From positions 1 through 55,213 of the forward strand of contig CALGTK010000133.1 of assembly GCA_937904325.1 (NCBI GenBank): a DNA stretch of 55,213 bases, given 5' to 3'. The position numbers and the translations under genes are program-made. The notes under the pieces were generated by a model. The model made no database searches. It was not told the DNA's origin and saw only the letters and a list, made by a program, of their open reading frames with translations. Source of the stretch: an uncultured Planctomyces sp. Its GTDB lineage: Bacteria; Planctomycetota; Planctomycetia; Planctomycetales; Planctomycetaceae. Positions 33,143-48,872 of the stretch are shown piece after piece. Each line of letters begins with the position of its first letter. Position 1 is the stretch's first letter.

Positions 33143-34441
33143 TTACGAATCCACAACTGACAGGCCGACCTGTCGTGCTCGTTCTCTCACGATGGCTGAC
33201 TTGCGTTGCTCGATCGTTGCTTCGTGAAGGTGCCGTAAGAGCCGTTCCTGCGCGAGTGTCAGATCATGGCCGCGACGATCCATCGCGGCTCGAGCAGTGT
33301 CCAGGGCCGATTCAAGATTGAGATCGTTATCGAGGTCGCCGTGCCAGACTCGGGCAAACGAAGGCACAAATTTCGGTAGCAGCTCGCCGCCTGGCAGTAA
33401 CATCGTCATCACGCCAATGGACGTTCCAGTGTTGAACAGGCTGCACACCGCGGTCTTTGAATGGTCGCCGATGAAGCAGCCAACTTTCGTCGATCCAGAA
33501 TCGATCGATTCACCGCTCAACGGAACCCGGACCGTTGAGTAGTCGTTCTTCAGATCGCTGTTCGTCGACAAAGCTCCCATATTGACCCACGGGCAAACAT
33601 AGCCATGCCCCAGGAAACCGTCGTGATACTTGTTCGCGTACCCGTGCAAGATCGAGTTTTCAATCTCACCGCCGACTCGGCAGACAGGACCGATCGTCGT
33701 GCCGGCTTTAACATTGGCCCGGAAGAGCTGACTGTCATAACCGATGTGGCACGGACCTTCGATTCGGGTGTAAGCCTGAACTTTGACACCAGATTCAATT
33801 GAAACCGGGCCGCTACGAGCATCGATCACGACGAACGGGTCGATATCAGCACCCCGGCTGACGAAGACGTTCTGGGGCTCTCCCAGCACGGCGATCTGCG
33901 GCCCGAAGTCCGTCTGCCCGTCCGTGAAATCTCTCGAGCGAAAATCCACTTCCAATTGTTCCGGGTTGAAGTCAACCAGGTCCCACGGATGGCTGATTGT
34001 TTTTCCTTCAGCTGGAACAGCGTTTCGCATCCCCGCGATTTTGAGCAGCGGATCGGCCCATTCGGTGTCGGTCACTAGCGAAGATTCAAACGTGTCGACG
34101 ACCAGAAACGCGAGCATGTCGCCGCAAAATCCGGCGGCGTCGCTGTCCACTGCGGAAAGTTGCTCAATCGCATCCGGTGTCGGCAGCCAGCGAGCGTTGA
34201 TCAGCAAAGTCGGTTCTTCGCCCAGCCAGACGCAGTCGTTGACGAACGCTTCCGGGCTGAATTCTCGATAGGACGACTGAAGGTAAGGGCGAATGAAGAC
34301 GCCCCATTCATGAACATCCAGAAAACGAATCAGCCGCTCACGCAGACTGAACTGCCCGCAAAGAAGCTCGAACACCGGCCGAGTCAGAGCGATCGGCGCA
34401 AATCCGTCCGCACCGTCATCTTCGAAAAATGCGATCCGCAT
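33143..34441 (-). CDS. GlmU-like sugar nucleotidyltransferase/acyltransferase
   Basis: Protein of the NTP_transf_4 (PF13562) type, often annotated as GlmU family or putative sugar nucleotidyltransferase. The N-terminus MRIAFFEDDGADGFAPIALTRP replaces the usual GlmU nucleotidyltransferase P-loop. The C-terminal half has the hexapeptide rhythm of a left-handed beta helix (for example VFVSRGADIDPFVVIDARSG and GPCHIGYDSQLFRANVKAG). GlmU proper keeps LAAGxGTRM, which is absent here, so a normal UDP-GlcNAc role should not be assumed. It is divergent from the large surface-protein gene. Start chosen at 34441, the longest ATG. Confidence 0.85.
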   Translation of the reverse strand: MRIAFFEDDGADGFAPIALTRPVFELLCGQFSLRERLIRFLDVHEWGVFIRPYLQSSYREFSPEAFVNDCVWLGEEPTLLINARWLPTPDAIEQLSAVDSDAAGFCGDMLAFLVVDTFESSLVTDTEWADPLLKIAGMRNAVPAEGKTISHPWDLVDFNPEQLEVDFRSRDFTDGQTDFGPQIAVLGEPQNVFVSRGADIDPFVVIDARSGPVSIESGVKVQAYTRIEGPCHIGYDSQLFRANVKAGTTIGPVCRVGGEIENSILHGYANKYHDGFLGHGYVCPWVNMGALSTNSDLKNDYSTVRVPLSGESIDSGSTKVGCFIGDHSKTAVCSLFNTGTSIGVMTMLLPGGELLPKFVPSFARVWHGDLDNDLNLESALDTARAAMDRRGHDLTLAQERLLRHLHEATIEQRKSAIVRERARQVGLSVVDS

Positions 34442-34511: not shown

Positions 34512-34655
34512 CGTAAGAAGCCAGAAATCTAATGGTTTCTGCAGAATCGCGGAAAGACCGGTTCTGCTTCTCCGCACTCCGTGCGGAAATCTTCGACGCG
34601 GCTGACGCGTACCAAGTCGCGTGCTTCCTCCGAAAATACGAACTGGTTTCTTACG
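34512..34655. repeat. nested inverted repeat with three internal hairpins
   Basis: A 13-position stem (CGTAAGAAGCCAG with CTGGTTTCTTACG, one G-U wobble, 34512-34524 and 34643-34655) encloses three consecutive hairpins. They are GCAGAATCG/CGGTTCTGC (34541-34567, one wobble), the perfect TCCGCAC/GTGCGGA (34571-34587, 3-base loop) and ACGCG/CGCGT (34596-34610). This is the shape of a four-way-junction RNA or of a mobile palindromic element with terminal inverted repeats. It matches no class I know. Which strand matters is not decided by the pairing. Confidence 0.7.
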
Positions 34656-34711
34656 CGAGCCCAGCAGTGCATCCGCCCAATTGCACCCATCTTAACTCCC
34701 AGCCGGAATAA
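34532..34711 (+). CDS. possible 59-residue small protein
   Basis: An ATG at 34532 opens a 59-codon frame ending with TAA at 34709. The translation looks protein-like over its first half (for example SRKDRFCFSALRAEIFDAAD and VACFLRKYELVSYASP) and less so later. There is no good ribosome binding site. It overlaps almost entirely with the nested inverted repeat, so the pairing could be fortuitous conservation of structure or the ORF could be fortuitous. It might also be a fragment of a lost gene. Not recognised. Confidence 0.35.
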   Translation: MVSAESRKDRFCFSALRAEIFDAADAYQVACFLRKYELVSYASPAVHPPNCTHLNSQPE

Positions 34712-34797
34712 TCGGAAAAGTCGACCTAATCTTCCAATTCCGACGCAATAAGCAAGGTCCCGCGGACCGATGATGTCCGAAGTCTCTCCTGCCAGGA

Positions 34798-37700
34798 ATG
34801 CGCGAGTTCATGTTCCAGCTTCCGTCGACAACATTCCGATTCTTCGCAATTCTGTCCACGATCGCTTCGGCGATTGTGTGGGTAGAGAATTCCGCGAATT
34901 GCCAGGGGATCAACGTCGGGTATGCAGAAGGACCTGCCATCCGCGGTACGAACATGGCGATGCCACTACCACTTGGAAATCCTGGTTACGGCAGGCCGTT
35001 GCAACAGCCCCGGATGATCCATCCGTCGGCATCTCCGTACCTGTTTCAGTCAGGAACAGCCAACGACGTCATTTATCCAGGTGCAAATACGTCGGCGTCG
35101 TTTCCCGTAACGAGTGTGGTCGACGTTCCGCCTGAGTCGGTTCAGCAGCTTGGCTATTCGCAATCTCAGCAATTTGCGCCACTCGGCAACTGCAACGCCT
35201 GTATGTCCGATAGTTGCGGTGGATGCTCAACCGGAGTGTGCGGCAGCCTCGGCGACCTGATGCCGTTTCACTGGCTTCAAGCCGTTGGCGGCGATGAATA
35301 CGGAGTCGCTCAGAACTGGTATTCACAGTTCGGTATTTTTGCTCCGTTGATTATTCTGCCGGATGAAACTGGACTCAGCTTTCTTCAGGCTAGTGGAACA
35401 GTCTCTGAAGGCAGCGTTTACGGAGCTAACGTCGGCTTCGTCACACGGTATCAGGACATGGCTTCTTACTGGTTCTTCGGTTCGAATTTCTGGTACGACT
35501 ACGAATCCACTCCTGACCAGGACCTGCATCAAGTGGGAATTGGTTTCGAAGCACTTTCTCGATTCATCGAGGTCCGAGCCAACGGCTACCTGCCGATTGG
35601 CACAACGTCGCGTTTCGAGTCAGTCAATCCGCAGCTCCAGGGACGCAACATACTGCTGGGCTATGACAATCTTGCCCTGGCCGGAGCAGACATCGAAGGT
35701 GGAGTGCGACCGTTCGAAAAACCCGAATTGTGGTTCTTCCTCGGCTATTACTTTTACACTGACCAGGACGACATCCTGAACGAAGACCCCCTCGAAGGTC
35801 TGCGTGGCCGCGTCGAAATGCGCCCCAACCGAAACCTTACGCTCGGCGTAACTGTCTCACAAGACGACGTTTACGACACGCAGGTTTTCGCCAGTGCCAC
35901 CTTCGCATTCCGTAGTTTTTCAGACATCCTTTCAGCTCCGGGCGGATGCAACGCTGAGCCACAGTTCACGCAACTGGTAACTCGCAAGTCTCGAATCACG
36001 ACACAGCGACAGGATCGCCTGGCGGCCAGCCCCGTAAACGGCGCACCACTGAATATTGTGCAGGCCAGTTCGACAGCCGCAGCAGGCGGAACCGGCACGG
36101 TTCAGCAACCATTTAACACACTCGCAGCAGCCGTCACCGCCGCTGGCGAAAACGGCATCATCTTCGTGCAGAACGGCACGTTTAACGAATCCATCAACCT
36201 GCTGAACGGCCAGCGACTTCTGGCTGACGGATTTCTCGACACAACGCCTCACGTTTTCAGCACGCAGAGCGGAATCATCACTCTGCCAGGCCAACAAACT
36301 CGAGCCCAGGTTCCCAGGCCTTCCATCACGTCGAACGACCTGCTCGGCACAGTCAAACTGTGCCCTGATGGCAACTTCGTCGACAACGTCGAGATTCGCG
36401 GATTCGACGTCGCAAACACAGTCGGCAGCGGCATTGTCGGCTTCCTGAACGATGGCCTGACCATCCGAGACAACGTCGTCAGCAACAACGCTGGATTCGG
36501 CATCGCCTTGTTCAACGCTTCGGGCGACGCCGTTAATTCGCCGACCGCTTCGGTTTCTGCATTCAGCATTCAGGACAACGAACTGAACCAGAATAATCAG
36601 GGAGGGCTACTGATTGTCGATGCAGATCTTGCGTCGTTCGACTTCGCGCCGACGGGTTTGAACATCAATTCCAAGGGTGTTTCATTCGCTGATCGCGGCG
36701 ATCTGACAGTGCAGGTTTCCGGCAACACGATCAGCGACAACGCGACCACAAGCACGTTATCTCCGCTTGGTCAGGGGTTAGCAAACGCGACGCTGCGAGA
36801 CGATCGGTACGGCGTTCAAGTCGTCGGTCTGACCGGATCTTCAATGACCGTGAATTTTGAATCCAACACGCTCGAACGAAACGGTATCTCTTCGGCACTT
36901 GGGCGATTCAGTTCGGCAGGCGGCCTCGCTGTTCTGGCCGGCGGAACGTCCACCGTCAACACGAACGTTACTGAGTCGACGTTTAACCGAAACGCCGGCA
37001 TCGACATCCAGGCAACCGTTGGAGACGGGCCAACGACTCTGGCAACAGCAACCGCAAACCTGAAGGTCGTCCGTAGCCTGCTGCAGAACTCTCAGCTTTC
37101 GGAAACTGATGATGGTGTGCTGGCTTCGGGAATTCGTCTGAACGCAGATCAAGGACTGCTCAATGCGACCATCGACAGCACGGTCATCCTCGGCGACACG
37201 ACAGTTCTCAATAGTGCGTTCGATCGGATGGAAGCTGTTTACGCGATCGCCGACGGCAGCGGCCGGATCAACACGACTATCTCTGGAACGGACCTCAATG
37301 CATTGACACGAACTGGCAATGAGTTCATCAACTGGCACGTCGGAGTCGGGTCAAACGCTGAAGACCTGGGAATTTCGATCGTCGATATCAGCGACACACT
37401 GCTCGATGCCGAGTGCGTGTTGAAGTTTCATACGGGCGAATTCGGCGATCCAGCGGTTTCGGCACTCTCCGCCACCGTACGACGATCTGAACTCGTCGCA
37501 CGTCTGCCGGAAAGTTCGCCGTTTGACGGCATCCGGGCGGAAGCCCTGGGCGGTTCCGACATGAGCCTCTCAATCCTCGATTCCGAATACCGCTTCGAAG
37601 GAACTGTTTCGGGATCGAATCCTGCACGATCATGGTTGAACGGCGACGTCAGCGACTCAGCCGACCTCACCTTGTTGATCGAAAACGGGATGCCCAGAAA

Positions 37701-38277
37701 CTCGATGGCCGGCTTCACCAACTTCATTGATCTGGCATCGGAAGATTCAGGAACTATCACCACAACGATTCGAAATACCACGATCGGTGACACAATCGGC
37801 CAGGGAATTGACATCGAAGCGTTCGACACTTCGCGAGTCACGCTCGACGTGATTGGCTCGACGCTCTCGAACAGTGGAGCCGGATTACTGGACGTATTGG
37901 CCAATGACCAGGCCGTTGCATCAAGCACGCTGACTTCCAACACACTGATCAACCCCGCCAATCGTGCCATCACGTTGCTGAGCAAAGCGACCAACTCGAC
38001 AGACAACGCCCGCGTCGGTGCAACGCTGACGTCAAACCAGTTTCAGGCACTTTCCGGAGCACTTCGAGCAACCAGCGACACTGACGACGGGCTCGCCGAA
38101 CTTCGGCTAAACATGACGAACAACACGTCGAACGGTCTTTACCTGCTGGAGCAACTTGAAGCTCCGCCTGGTACCGCCGCTATCACTCTGTTTGACGGCG
38201 GCGGCAACTCGCCCACTCAGACAACATCAGGAACGATCGGCACGTCCACAACCACGCTGGATATCAATTTTCCGTAG
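34798..38277 (+). CDS. giant outer-membrane/surface protein: barrel plus beta-helix
   Basis: An 1159-residue exported protein. The N-terminal signal peptide (STTFRFFAILSTIASAIVW, cleavage near NSANC) is followed by a Cys-rich linker (NCNACMSDSCGGCSTGVCG, about 131-149). A beta-strand-rich part (about 173-375) resembles an inverse-autotransporter/intimin-type barrel, for example NWYSQFGIFAPL and GVRPFEKPELWFFLGYY. From about 438 a right-handed beta-helix begins (PFNTLAAAVTAAGENGIIFV). It continues with many short Ile/Asn/Thr-rich turns to the end. The likely design is a barrel anchor with a long surface stalk. The ATG at 34798 leaves no room for the AGGA just upstream; an ATG at 34810 fits the Shine-Dalgarno better. 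Function inferred: adhesion or surface layer. Confidence 0.8.
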   Translation: MREFMFQLPSTTFRFFAILSTIASAIVWVENSANCQGINVGYAEGPAIRGTNMAMPLPLGNPGYGRPLQQPRMIHPSASPYLFQSGTANDVIYPGANTSASFPVTSVVDVPPESVQQLGYSQSQQFAPLGNCNACMSDSCGGCSTGVCGSLGDLMPFHWLQAVGGDEYGVAQNWYSQFGIFAPLIILPDETGLSFLQASGTVSEGSVYGANVGFVTRYQDMASYWFFGSNFWYDYESTPDQDLHQVGIGFEALSRFIEVRANGYLPIGTTSRFESVNPQLQGRNILLGYDNLALAGADIEGGVRPFEKPELWFFLGYYFYTDQDDILNEDPLEGLRGRVEMRPNRNLTLGVTVSQDDVYDTQVFASATFAFRSFSDILSAPGGCNAEPQFTQLVTRKSRITTQRQDRLAASPVNGAPLNIVQASSTAAAGGTGTVQQPFNTLAAAVTAAGENGIIFVQNGTFNESINLLNGQRLLADGFLDTTPHVFSTQSGIITLPGQQTRAQVPRPSITSNDLLGTVKLCPDGNFVDNVEIRGFDVANTVGSGIVGFLNDGLTIRDNVVSNNAGFGIALFNASGDAVNSPTASVSAFSIQDNELNQNNQGGLLIVDADLASFDFAPTGLNINSKGVSFADRGDLTVQVSGNTISDNATTSTLSPLGQGLANATLRDDRYGVQVVGLTGSSMTVNFESNTLERNGISSALGRFSSAGGLAVLAGGTSTVNTNVTESTFNRNAGIDIQATVGDGPTTLATATANLKVVRSLLQNSQLSETDDGVLASGIRLNADQGLLNATIDSTVILGDTTVLNSAFDRMEAVYAIADGSGRINTTISGTDLNALTRTGNEFINWHVGVGSNAEDLGISIVDISDTLLDAECVLKFHTGEFGDPAVSALSATVRRSELVARLPESSPFDGIRAEALGGSDMSLSILDSEYRFEGTVSGSNPARSWLNGDVSDSADLTLLIENGMPRNSMAGFTNFIDLASEDSGTITTTIRNTTIGDTIGQGIDIEAFDTSRVTLDVIGSTLSNSGAGLLDVLANDQAVASSTLTSNTLINPANRAITLLSKATNSTDNARVGATLTSNQFQALSGALRATSDTDDGLAELRLNMTNNTSNGLYLLEQLEAPPGTAAITLFDGGGNSPTQTTSGTIGTSTTTLDINFP

Positions 38278-48031: not shown

Positions 48032-48872
48032 GTCCCGTCATCCATTTCTCAGTCGCTGCTGCAAAGCAATTCAGCCAGCCACAACTTCTGATTTTATGTC
48101 TTCGATTCTGGTCTCTTTCGCCCGACTCACATGAAAACATCGGTGTACACACAAGTTTGACAAGTCGGCATCCTGGATATTTCACCATTGAAGTACCAGG
48201 CAACGCCCGTGGTTCTGAGCAGCTTTGCTGATATCAACTGAGAATACCGTGAGATTCCTGAAGGACATACGAGCAGTTTCTTTATGAGTAGGTGCCGACG
48301 TGTCGGAAAATGGCATCTCTTCGTTGCTGAGGGATGGGGTGAGACCTAACTTCCCTCAGCAGCAGTCCGCACCTGCGGAATGCTCCATACTTCTTTCTTA
48401 GAGAGCTCCATCCTTCTTTTTCTCACAGAGAATGGCGTTTTGCTTCTCAGACCTGGCGATTCCGGTGAACTTCAAGATGAACAAATTTTCTATTCAACAA
48501 TCACTGGAATGCATCGCCCACGTCCAGACGGTCATCTCACCACATTGACACGTTTCCGGTGTGTTGCATGCTGATAGAAAAACGCTTGAGTTCGTGCTAT
48601 ACGAAAGACCTGCAGTCGTCGCCTGGCAGTCGCGACTGGCTTTGGCTGTTTTGATTCTTCAATCACTCGGGTTGCGTAAAGGTTGATTCTCCAACTTCAT
48701 TGGGAATCATCGCCCGCCGTTGGCGAGCACCGAAACCAGCCCGATCCAATAATTTGAATTGTACGTCTTTGCTGGAAAATCCAGGAAACCATCCGAGTGT
48801 CATTGGCGGCGAATCACGGCTGCCAGCGTTTGAAACTGACATCTGAATCTTTGACAACGATGAGTACTGACC
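48032..48872. other. 840-base gap with three clustered hairpins
   Basis: No convincing gene. A run of three hairpins occupies 48295-48379. A short minus-strand frame near 48663-48857 is protein-like but unrecognised. The first half contains no RNA gene that I could recognise. Confidence 0.5.
48295..48379. repeat. cluster of three hairpins
   Basis: CCGACGTGTCGG (48295-48306), a 12-position stem GTTGCTGAGGGA/TCCCTCAGCAGC with one wobble (48323-48334 and 48352-48363), and TCCGCA/TGCGGA (48366-48379) occur within 85 bases. No T-run follows. This could be a structured RNA or a REP-like repeat. The last hairpin resembles the TCCGCAC/GTGCGGA hairpin at 34571. Confidence 0.55.

What the first reader, a model, noticed from the sequence alone, without database searches (positions are those of the whole stretch)
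34512..34655. Nested inverted repeat with three internal hairpins
A 13-position outer stem encloses three well-formed hairpins in one 144-base element, between a GlmU-like gene and a giant surface-protein gene. It matches no RNA class I know and could be a new structured RNA, a leader element of the surface protein, or a palindromic mobile element. The similar TCCGCA hairpin at 48366 hints that parts recur.
Basis: seen in the sequence. Interest (0 to 1): 0.6.

Follow-up and report, generated by a model that had tools for sequence, protein, structure and literature searches.

The report
Decayed mini-transposon beside a conserved promoter
The apparent nested RNA structure is two unrelated things side by side, the promoter of a sugar-nucleotidyltransferase-like gene and a worn, one-armed copy of a small palindromic mobile element; the element itself belongs to a family in which one transposon-like frame carries many different hairpins.

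Summary
The inverted repeats exist at the stated coordinates, but the 144 bases are not one element. The outer 13-base stem (12/13 paired) is no more than chance: the window has 4 such stems, shuffles 1-10. Four of five genus genomes lack its 3' arm. The left part (34512-34568) is conserved in five genomes and holds the likely promoter of the minus-strand gene 33143-34441; a two-box motif recurs in 14 of 26 orthologue upstreams (shuffle mean 0.01). The right part (34570-34662) is a diverged, left-truncated copy of a dispersed palindromic repeat (E=1e-11, model built without this copy), with about 20 other copies in this genome. The repeat is composite. Its core is a dimer of REP units; the same units flank a REP-associated tyrosine transposase gene in a sister species. 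Its outer frame matches the ends of a 1310-bp ISAzo13-family insertion sequence, with signs of 3-bp target duplications. The same frame carries about 12 different interiors, mostly palindromic, in related planctomycetes; an empty frame exists. So: not a new RNA or leader. 'Palindromic mobile element' fits the right half only: a new variant of known kinds (REP dimers, IS-derived MITEs).

The parts
34570..34662 (+). Diverged, left-truncated copy of the composite palindromic repeat: REP dimer plus the right terminal inverted repeat of the frame
   Evidence: HMM built without this copy hits only here in the window, E 1e-11, model positions 50-138 of 151
34570..34624 (+). REP dimer core: hairpin CCGCAC-TCC-GTGCGG, then a degenerate inverted second unit (ACGCGTACCAAGTCGCGT)
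   Evidence: 82% identity to the family consensus, E 5e-6 in the own-genome search; consensus
34633..34662 (+).
   Evidence: HMM alignment; family consensus
34512..34524 (.).
   Evidence: Conserved in five genomes; chance-level pairing with the 3' arm
34526..34558 (-).
   Evidence: RTCTTY-N20/21-TANATT in 14 of 26 orthologue upstreams, shuffle mean 0.01
33143..34441 (-). Neighbouring gene, sugar nucleotidyltransferase-like (432 aa)
   Evidence: PF13562 NTP_transf_4, E 2.6e-28
34698..34797 (+). Conserved leader of the surface-protein gene, downstream of the element
   Evidence: Alignment of five genomes
34798..38277 (+). Surface-protein gene, inverse-autotransporter-like with beta-helix (1159 aa)
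   Evidence: PF11924 E 2e-9 and PF13229 E 6e-7
48331..48387 (+). Possible relict of the left half of the same repeat
   Evidence: Local score 41 against at most 35 for unrelated places; below HMM threshold

Best explanation
34570-34662 is a fossil of a small non-autonomous mobile element that landed between two divergent genes and lost its left end; 34512-34568 is the promoter region of the neighbouring minus-strand gene. The intact element is about 120-130 bp: an outer frame with the terminal inverted repeats of an ISAzo13-family insertion sequence, and inside it a dimer of inverted REP units with GTGGC heads outward. Shown: membership of a dispersed family; absence from the same site in relatives; near-identity of the frame ends with those of an ISAzo13-family element; REP units around a RAYT gene in a sister species; one frame with many interiors; empty and filled frames in one genome. 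Inferred: frames were moved by an ISAzo13-type transposase that duplicates 3 bp of target; REP dimers were added by REP-associated tyrosine transposases; the copy here is inert (neither transposase family was detected in this genome) and has no RNA role. The outer stem is a chance pairing across the junction.
For: HMM hit E 1e-11 to 34570-34662 with the window copy left out. Dispersed copies in own genome and G003. The site in G003 lacks the repeat and G005 has another gene there. 28-nt units on both sides of a RAYT-like gene in G003. Frame arms in all six genus genomes, 7 to 81 per genome, reversed control 0. G296 arms with 0 and 2 mismatches bound 1310 bp with an ISAzo13 transposase, PF07592 E 4e-106, NF033519 E 3e-116. 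In-genus ISAzo13 element in G001 with related ends and TTA on both sides. Identical 3-bp flanks in 16 of 62 frames, shuffle mean 8.1, reached in 5 of 2000 shuffles; 3-bp duplications are reported for ISAzo13 (PMC10045372). Empty and filled frames in G002. Outer stem at chance level and without partner in homologues. Promoter boxes in 14 of 26 orthologues.
Against: The left frame arm is missing, so no target duplication can be read at this site. The autonomous element with near-identical ends comes from another family of the class, not from this genus; the in-genus element has only related ends. Three-bp duplications are a statistical excess only, and T-N-A next to the arms may partly be palindrome or target preference. 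RAYT involvement rests on one locus; its protein scores below the NCBIfam RAYT cut-off (53.9 of 80 bits) though above the Pfam Y1_Tnp cut-off. No transcript data.
Confidence: 0.85

Rival explanations
1. One structured RNA or cis-regulatory leader of 144 nt, formed by the outer stem and three hairpins.
For: Fold z -5.4 on the + strand; three pairs of hairpin 2 show changes on both sides among five sequences, and the whole structure exceeds most shuffles on covariation (14/500).
Against: Outer stem at chance level and present in one genome only; the signal in hairpin 2 lies in a promoter; the right half is a dispersed repeat; no Rfam match.
Confidence: 0.04
2. A REP dimer only, dispersed by RAYT, with the frame arms being just its extended flanks rather than an ISAzo13 mini-element.
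For: REP units around a RAYT-like gene in G003; single units without frames occur there.
Against: The frame occurs with many unrelated interiors and nearly empty, and bounds an ISAzo13 transposase.
Confidence: 0.08
3. The inserted repeat now has a host role here, for example as an insulator or terminator between the two divergent promoters.
For: It sits between two conserved upstream blocks, about 10 bp from the outer promoter box of the minus-strand gene.
Against: Relatives lack it at this site; the copy is decayed and one-ended.
Confidence: 0.05

Closest known systems
REP dimers (REPIN/BIME) with REP-associated tyrosine transposases (RAYT); PMC3116915, PMC2817692
   Same: Two inverted short palindromic units in one dispersed element; the same units on both sides of a Y1-type transposase gene in a sister species
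   Different: Head is GTGG rather than the usual GTAG; low copy number here; most copies sit inside a longer palindromic frame; no Y1 transposase in the window's genome
ISAzo13-family insertion sequences and MITEs derived from insertion sequences
   Same: Terminal inverted repeats match those of a 1310-bp ISAzo13-family element; sign of 3-bp target duplications, as reported for the family (PMC10045372)
   Different: No transposase gene inside; interiors are unrelated palindromes, not internal deletions of the insertion sequence; the window copy has one end only
REP dimers inserted in long palindromes in Anabaena variabilis and Halothiobacillus neapolitanus (PMC3733652)
   Same: REP dimer nested inside a longer dispersed palindrome
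   Different: There each case is one REP family in its own palindrome, and palindromes without REPs were not found in those two genomes; here one frame has about 12 kinds of interior, a near-empty frame exists, and a transposase family for the frame is proposed

Membership tests
REP dimer / REPIN | Short palindromic units, dispersed in the genome, mostly paired in inverted orientation | tested here: met
   the window copy is a dimer with a degenerate second unit
REP dimer / REPIN | Association with a RAYT gene flanked by the same units | tested here: met
   Met in G003; in the window's own genome no Y1_Tnp match
REP dimer / REPIN | Unpaired GTAG tag recognised and cut by RAYT | tested here: inconclusive
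   The head is GTGG(C), not GTAG; cutting not testable here
MITE of the ISAzo13 family | Terminal inverted repeats shared with an autonomous ISAzo13 element | tested here: met
   For the family: arms with 0 and 2 mismatches in G296. The window copy keeps only the right arm
MITE of the ISAzo13 family | 3-bp target site duplication | tested here: inconclusive
   16 of 62 frames identical against 8.1 expected; not readable at the window copy
MITE of the ISAzo13 family | Mobilisation in trans by the transposase | not testable with these tools
   Needs a transposition assay
Structured RNA (any Rfam family) | Match to a covariance model | tested here: not met
   No hit at the gathering thresholds or up to E 5
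Structured RNA (new) | Compensatory changes in the outer stem among homologues | tested here: not met
   3' arm absent in four of five genomes

The most novel reading that the evidence does not exclude
In this planctomycete genus and several relatives, one ISAzo13-type frame works as a modular carrier or preferred landing site for many unrelated REP-type palindromes, giving two-tier mini-elements whose frame and cargo are moved by different transposases; the window holds a worn copy of one.
Probability: 0.45. Interest if true: 0.5.

Novelty: new variant of a known kind. Interest (0 to 1): 0.36.

Why it matters
For the window, it removes a false RNA candidate and explains the repeat. For the field, the related genomes show a frame-plus-cargo arrangement that ties REP-type palindromes, whose spread is poorly understood, to a DDE-type insertion sequence family. 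It offers a natural set of empty and filled frames in which the order and mechanism of REP insertion can be tested.

Tried and rejected
Rfam search at gathering and permissive thresholds: nothing. 59-codon ORF: spans the conservation boundary. Search for an autonomous element bounded by the frame within the genus: none among 20 extended loci; flanking repeats were sought around three in-genus ISAzo13 genes and only one had related ends. Exact half-unit in viral contigs: none. Literature: only PMC3733652 came close among planctomycete or nested-REP searches. No covariance model was built, because a sequence profile already explained the right half. The first alignments of the G001 site used the wrong strand and were redone.

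Full report
Observation. The arms 34512-34524 and 34643-34655 pair at 12 of 13 positions and the segment folds well as RNA on the + strand (-58.8 kcal/mol, z -5.4; minus strand z -3.2). However, a count of 13-nt arms with at least 12 complementary positions and 20-150 nt between them gives 4 in the window and 1, 9, 7, 3, 9, 10, 3, 5, 5, 7 in ten dinucleotide shuffles. The outer stem is therefore expected by chance. The right half alone folds only slightly better than shuffles (z about -1.7).

Two histories. The window is contig C133 of a planctomycete draft genome of 7.97 Mb; the closest named relatives of its genes are MAGs labelled Planctomycetaceae, Rhodopirellula or Planctomyces. The site aligns with those of four other genus genomes from the minus-strand gene up to about 34568, and the DNA in front of the surface-protein gene is conserved again from about 34698. 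The stretch between is not shared: G003 has about 75 unrelated bases and G005 has a different gene there. So the left arm of the stem lies in conserved flank and the right arm in DNA peculiar to this genome. Pair counting confirms that the outer stem has letters on both sides in one of five sequences only.

Left half. Upstream of the 432-aa NTP_transf_4 gene, 14 of 26 sequences (window and orthologues across planctomycetes) share RTCTTY-N20/21-TANATT at 56-122 bases before the start codon; shuffles give 0.01 on average. In the window this is 34558-34526 on the minus strand. A start of transcription near 34519 is inferred from it. The first two hairpins therefore overlap a promoter. Hairpin 2 has three pairs with changes on both sides among five sequences; an operator-like dyad remains possible and was not pursued.

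Right half. DNA searches returned dispersed matches to 34570-34624 in this genome and in G003. Their consensus is GTGGCTCCGCACTCCGTGCGGAAAGCCC, about 5 variable bases, GGGCTGACGCGACGGAGTCGCGTGCCAC: two inverted 28-nt units. In this genome 19 places are listed at E up to 1 (16 at E up to 0.01) and in G003 26; a longer consensus adds more in this genome. A profile built from the family without the window copy finds 34570-34662 with E 1e-11 and nothing else significant in the window. Model positions before 50 are missing, so the left end is lost. In G003 the 28-nt units lie on both sides of a 226-aa gene that matches PF01797 above its cut-off and the NCBIfam RAYT model below its cut-off. No Y1-type transposase was found in the window's genome.

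The frame. Most copies extend on both sides into GGAACGTGTCCGAAATAACTTCC and its approximate reverse complement. This arm occurs in all six genus genomes, 7 to 81 times each at up to 3 mismatches, with none for the reversed control, in a minority of other genera of the family, and in two genomes of another family in a sample of the class. Between the arms lie many different interiors: 70 distinct ones fell into 12 clusters by sequence, among them the GTGGC dimer, a GTCATTCCCGCGCAGGCGGGAAACCAG dimer and an ACCACAGAGGCACAGAG dimer. The clusters are single-linkage and approximate. Forty-eight of 69 interiors fold with z below -3. In G002 a frame without cargo matches frames that hold an insert of roughly 80 bases between the same subterminal sequences. 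In G296, arms with 0 and 2 mismatches bound 1310 bp with two overlapping reading frames; both match the ISAzo13 transposase model and the longer one PF07592. An ISAzo13 element in G001 has related ends and TTA on both sides. Three-base flanks are identical in 16 of 62 frames against 8.1 expected, in line with the 3-bp duplications reported for ISAzo13 (PMC10045372). G000, G002 and G003 have no ISAzo13 match.

Conclusion. The finding is a junction of a conserved promoter and a decayed, one-ended mini-element. How the interiors came to vary is open: insertion of REP dimers into frames by RAYTs, capture by the frame's transposase, and gene conversion all remain possible. Nesting of REP dimers in longer palindromes has been described in other phyla (PMC3733652). 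What appears new, in the papers that could be searched, is one frame with many cargos and its link to ISAzo13.

Noticed in passing
window 48331-48387: Possible relict of the left half of the same repeat family, the best match in the window outside the element itself (score 41 against at most 35 elsewhere).
   Followed up: partly
L060 1600-2636 (G003:C17): RAYT-like gene with three copies of adjacent REP units around it, in the opposite dimer arrangement (GTGGC heads together) to that inside frames.
   Followed up: partly
L060 5807-5863 (G003:C17): A REP dimer lies inside the reading frame of a 1310-aa protein-kinase-like ORF without breaking it.
   Followed up: no
L292 190-300 against L288 and L289 (G002): A near-empty frame and filled frames with the same subterminal sequences in one genome.
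   Followed up: partly
L263 and L278 (G001, G005): Frames of about 300 bp with a larger composite palindrome inside.
   Followed up: no
L043 (G002:C105): A frame copy flanked on both sides by halves of another palindrome (TTCCCGCGCAGGCGGGAA), as if the frame had entered that palindrome: nesting in the reverse order.
   Followed up: no
window 34541-34567: Dyad overlapping the minus-strand promoter with three pairs changed on both sides among five sequences; could be an operator.
   Followed up: no
window 34698-34797: Strongly conserved leader of the inverse-autotransporter-like gene (CGGAATAATCGGAAAAGTCGACC), also found in G001 and G002 on other contigs.
   Followed up: no
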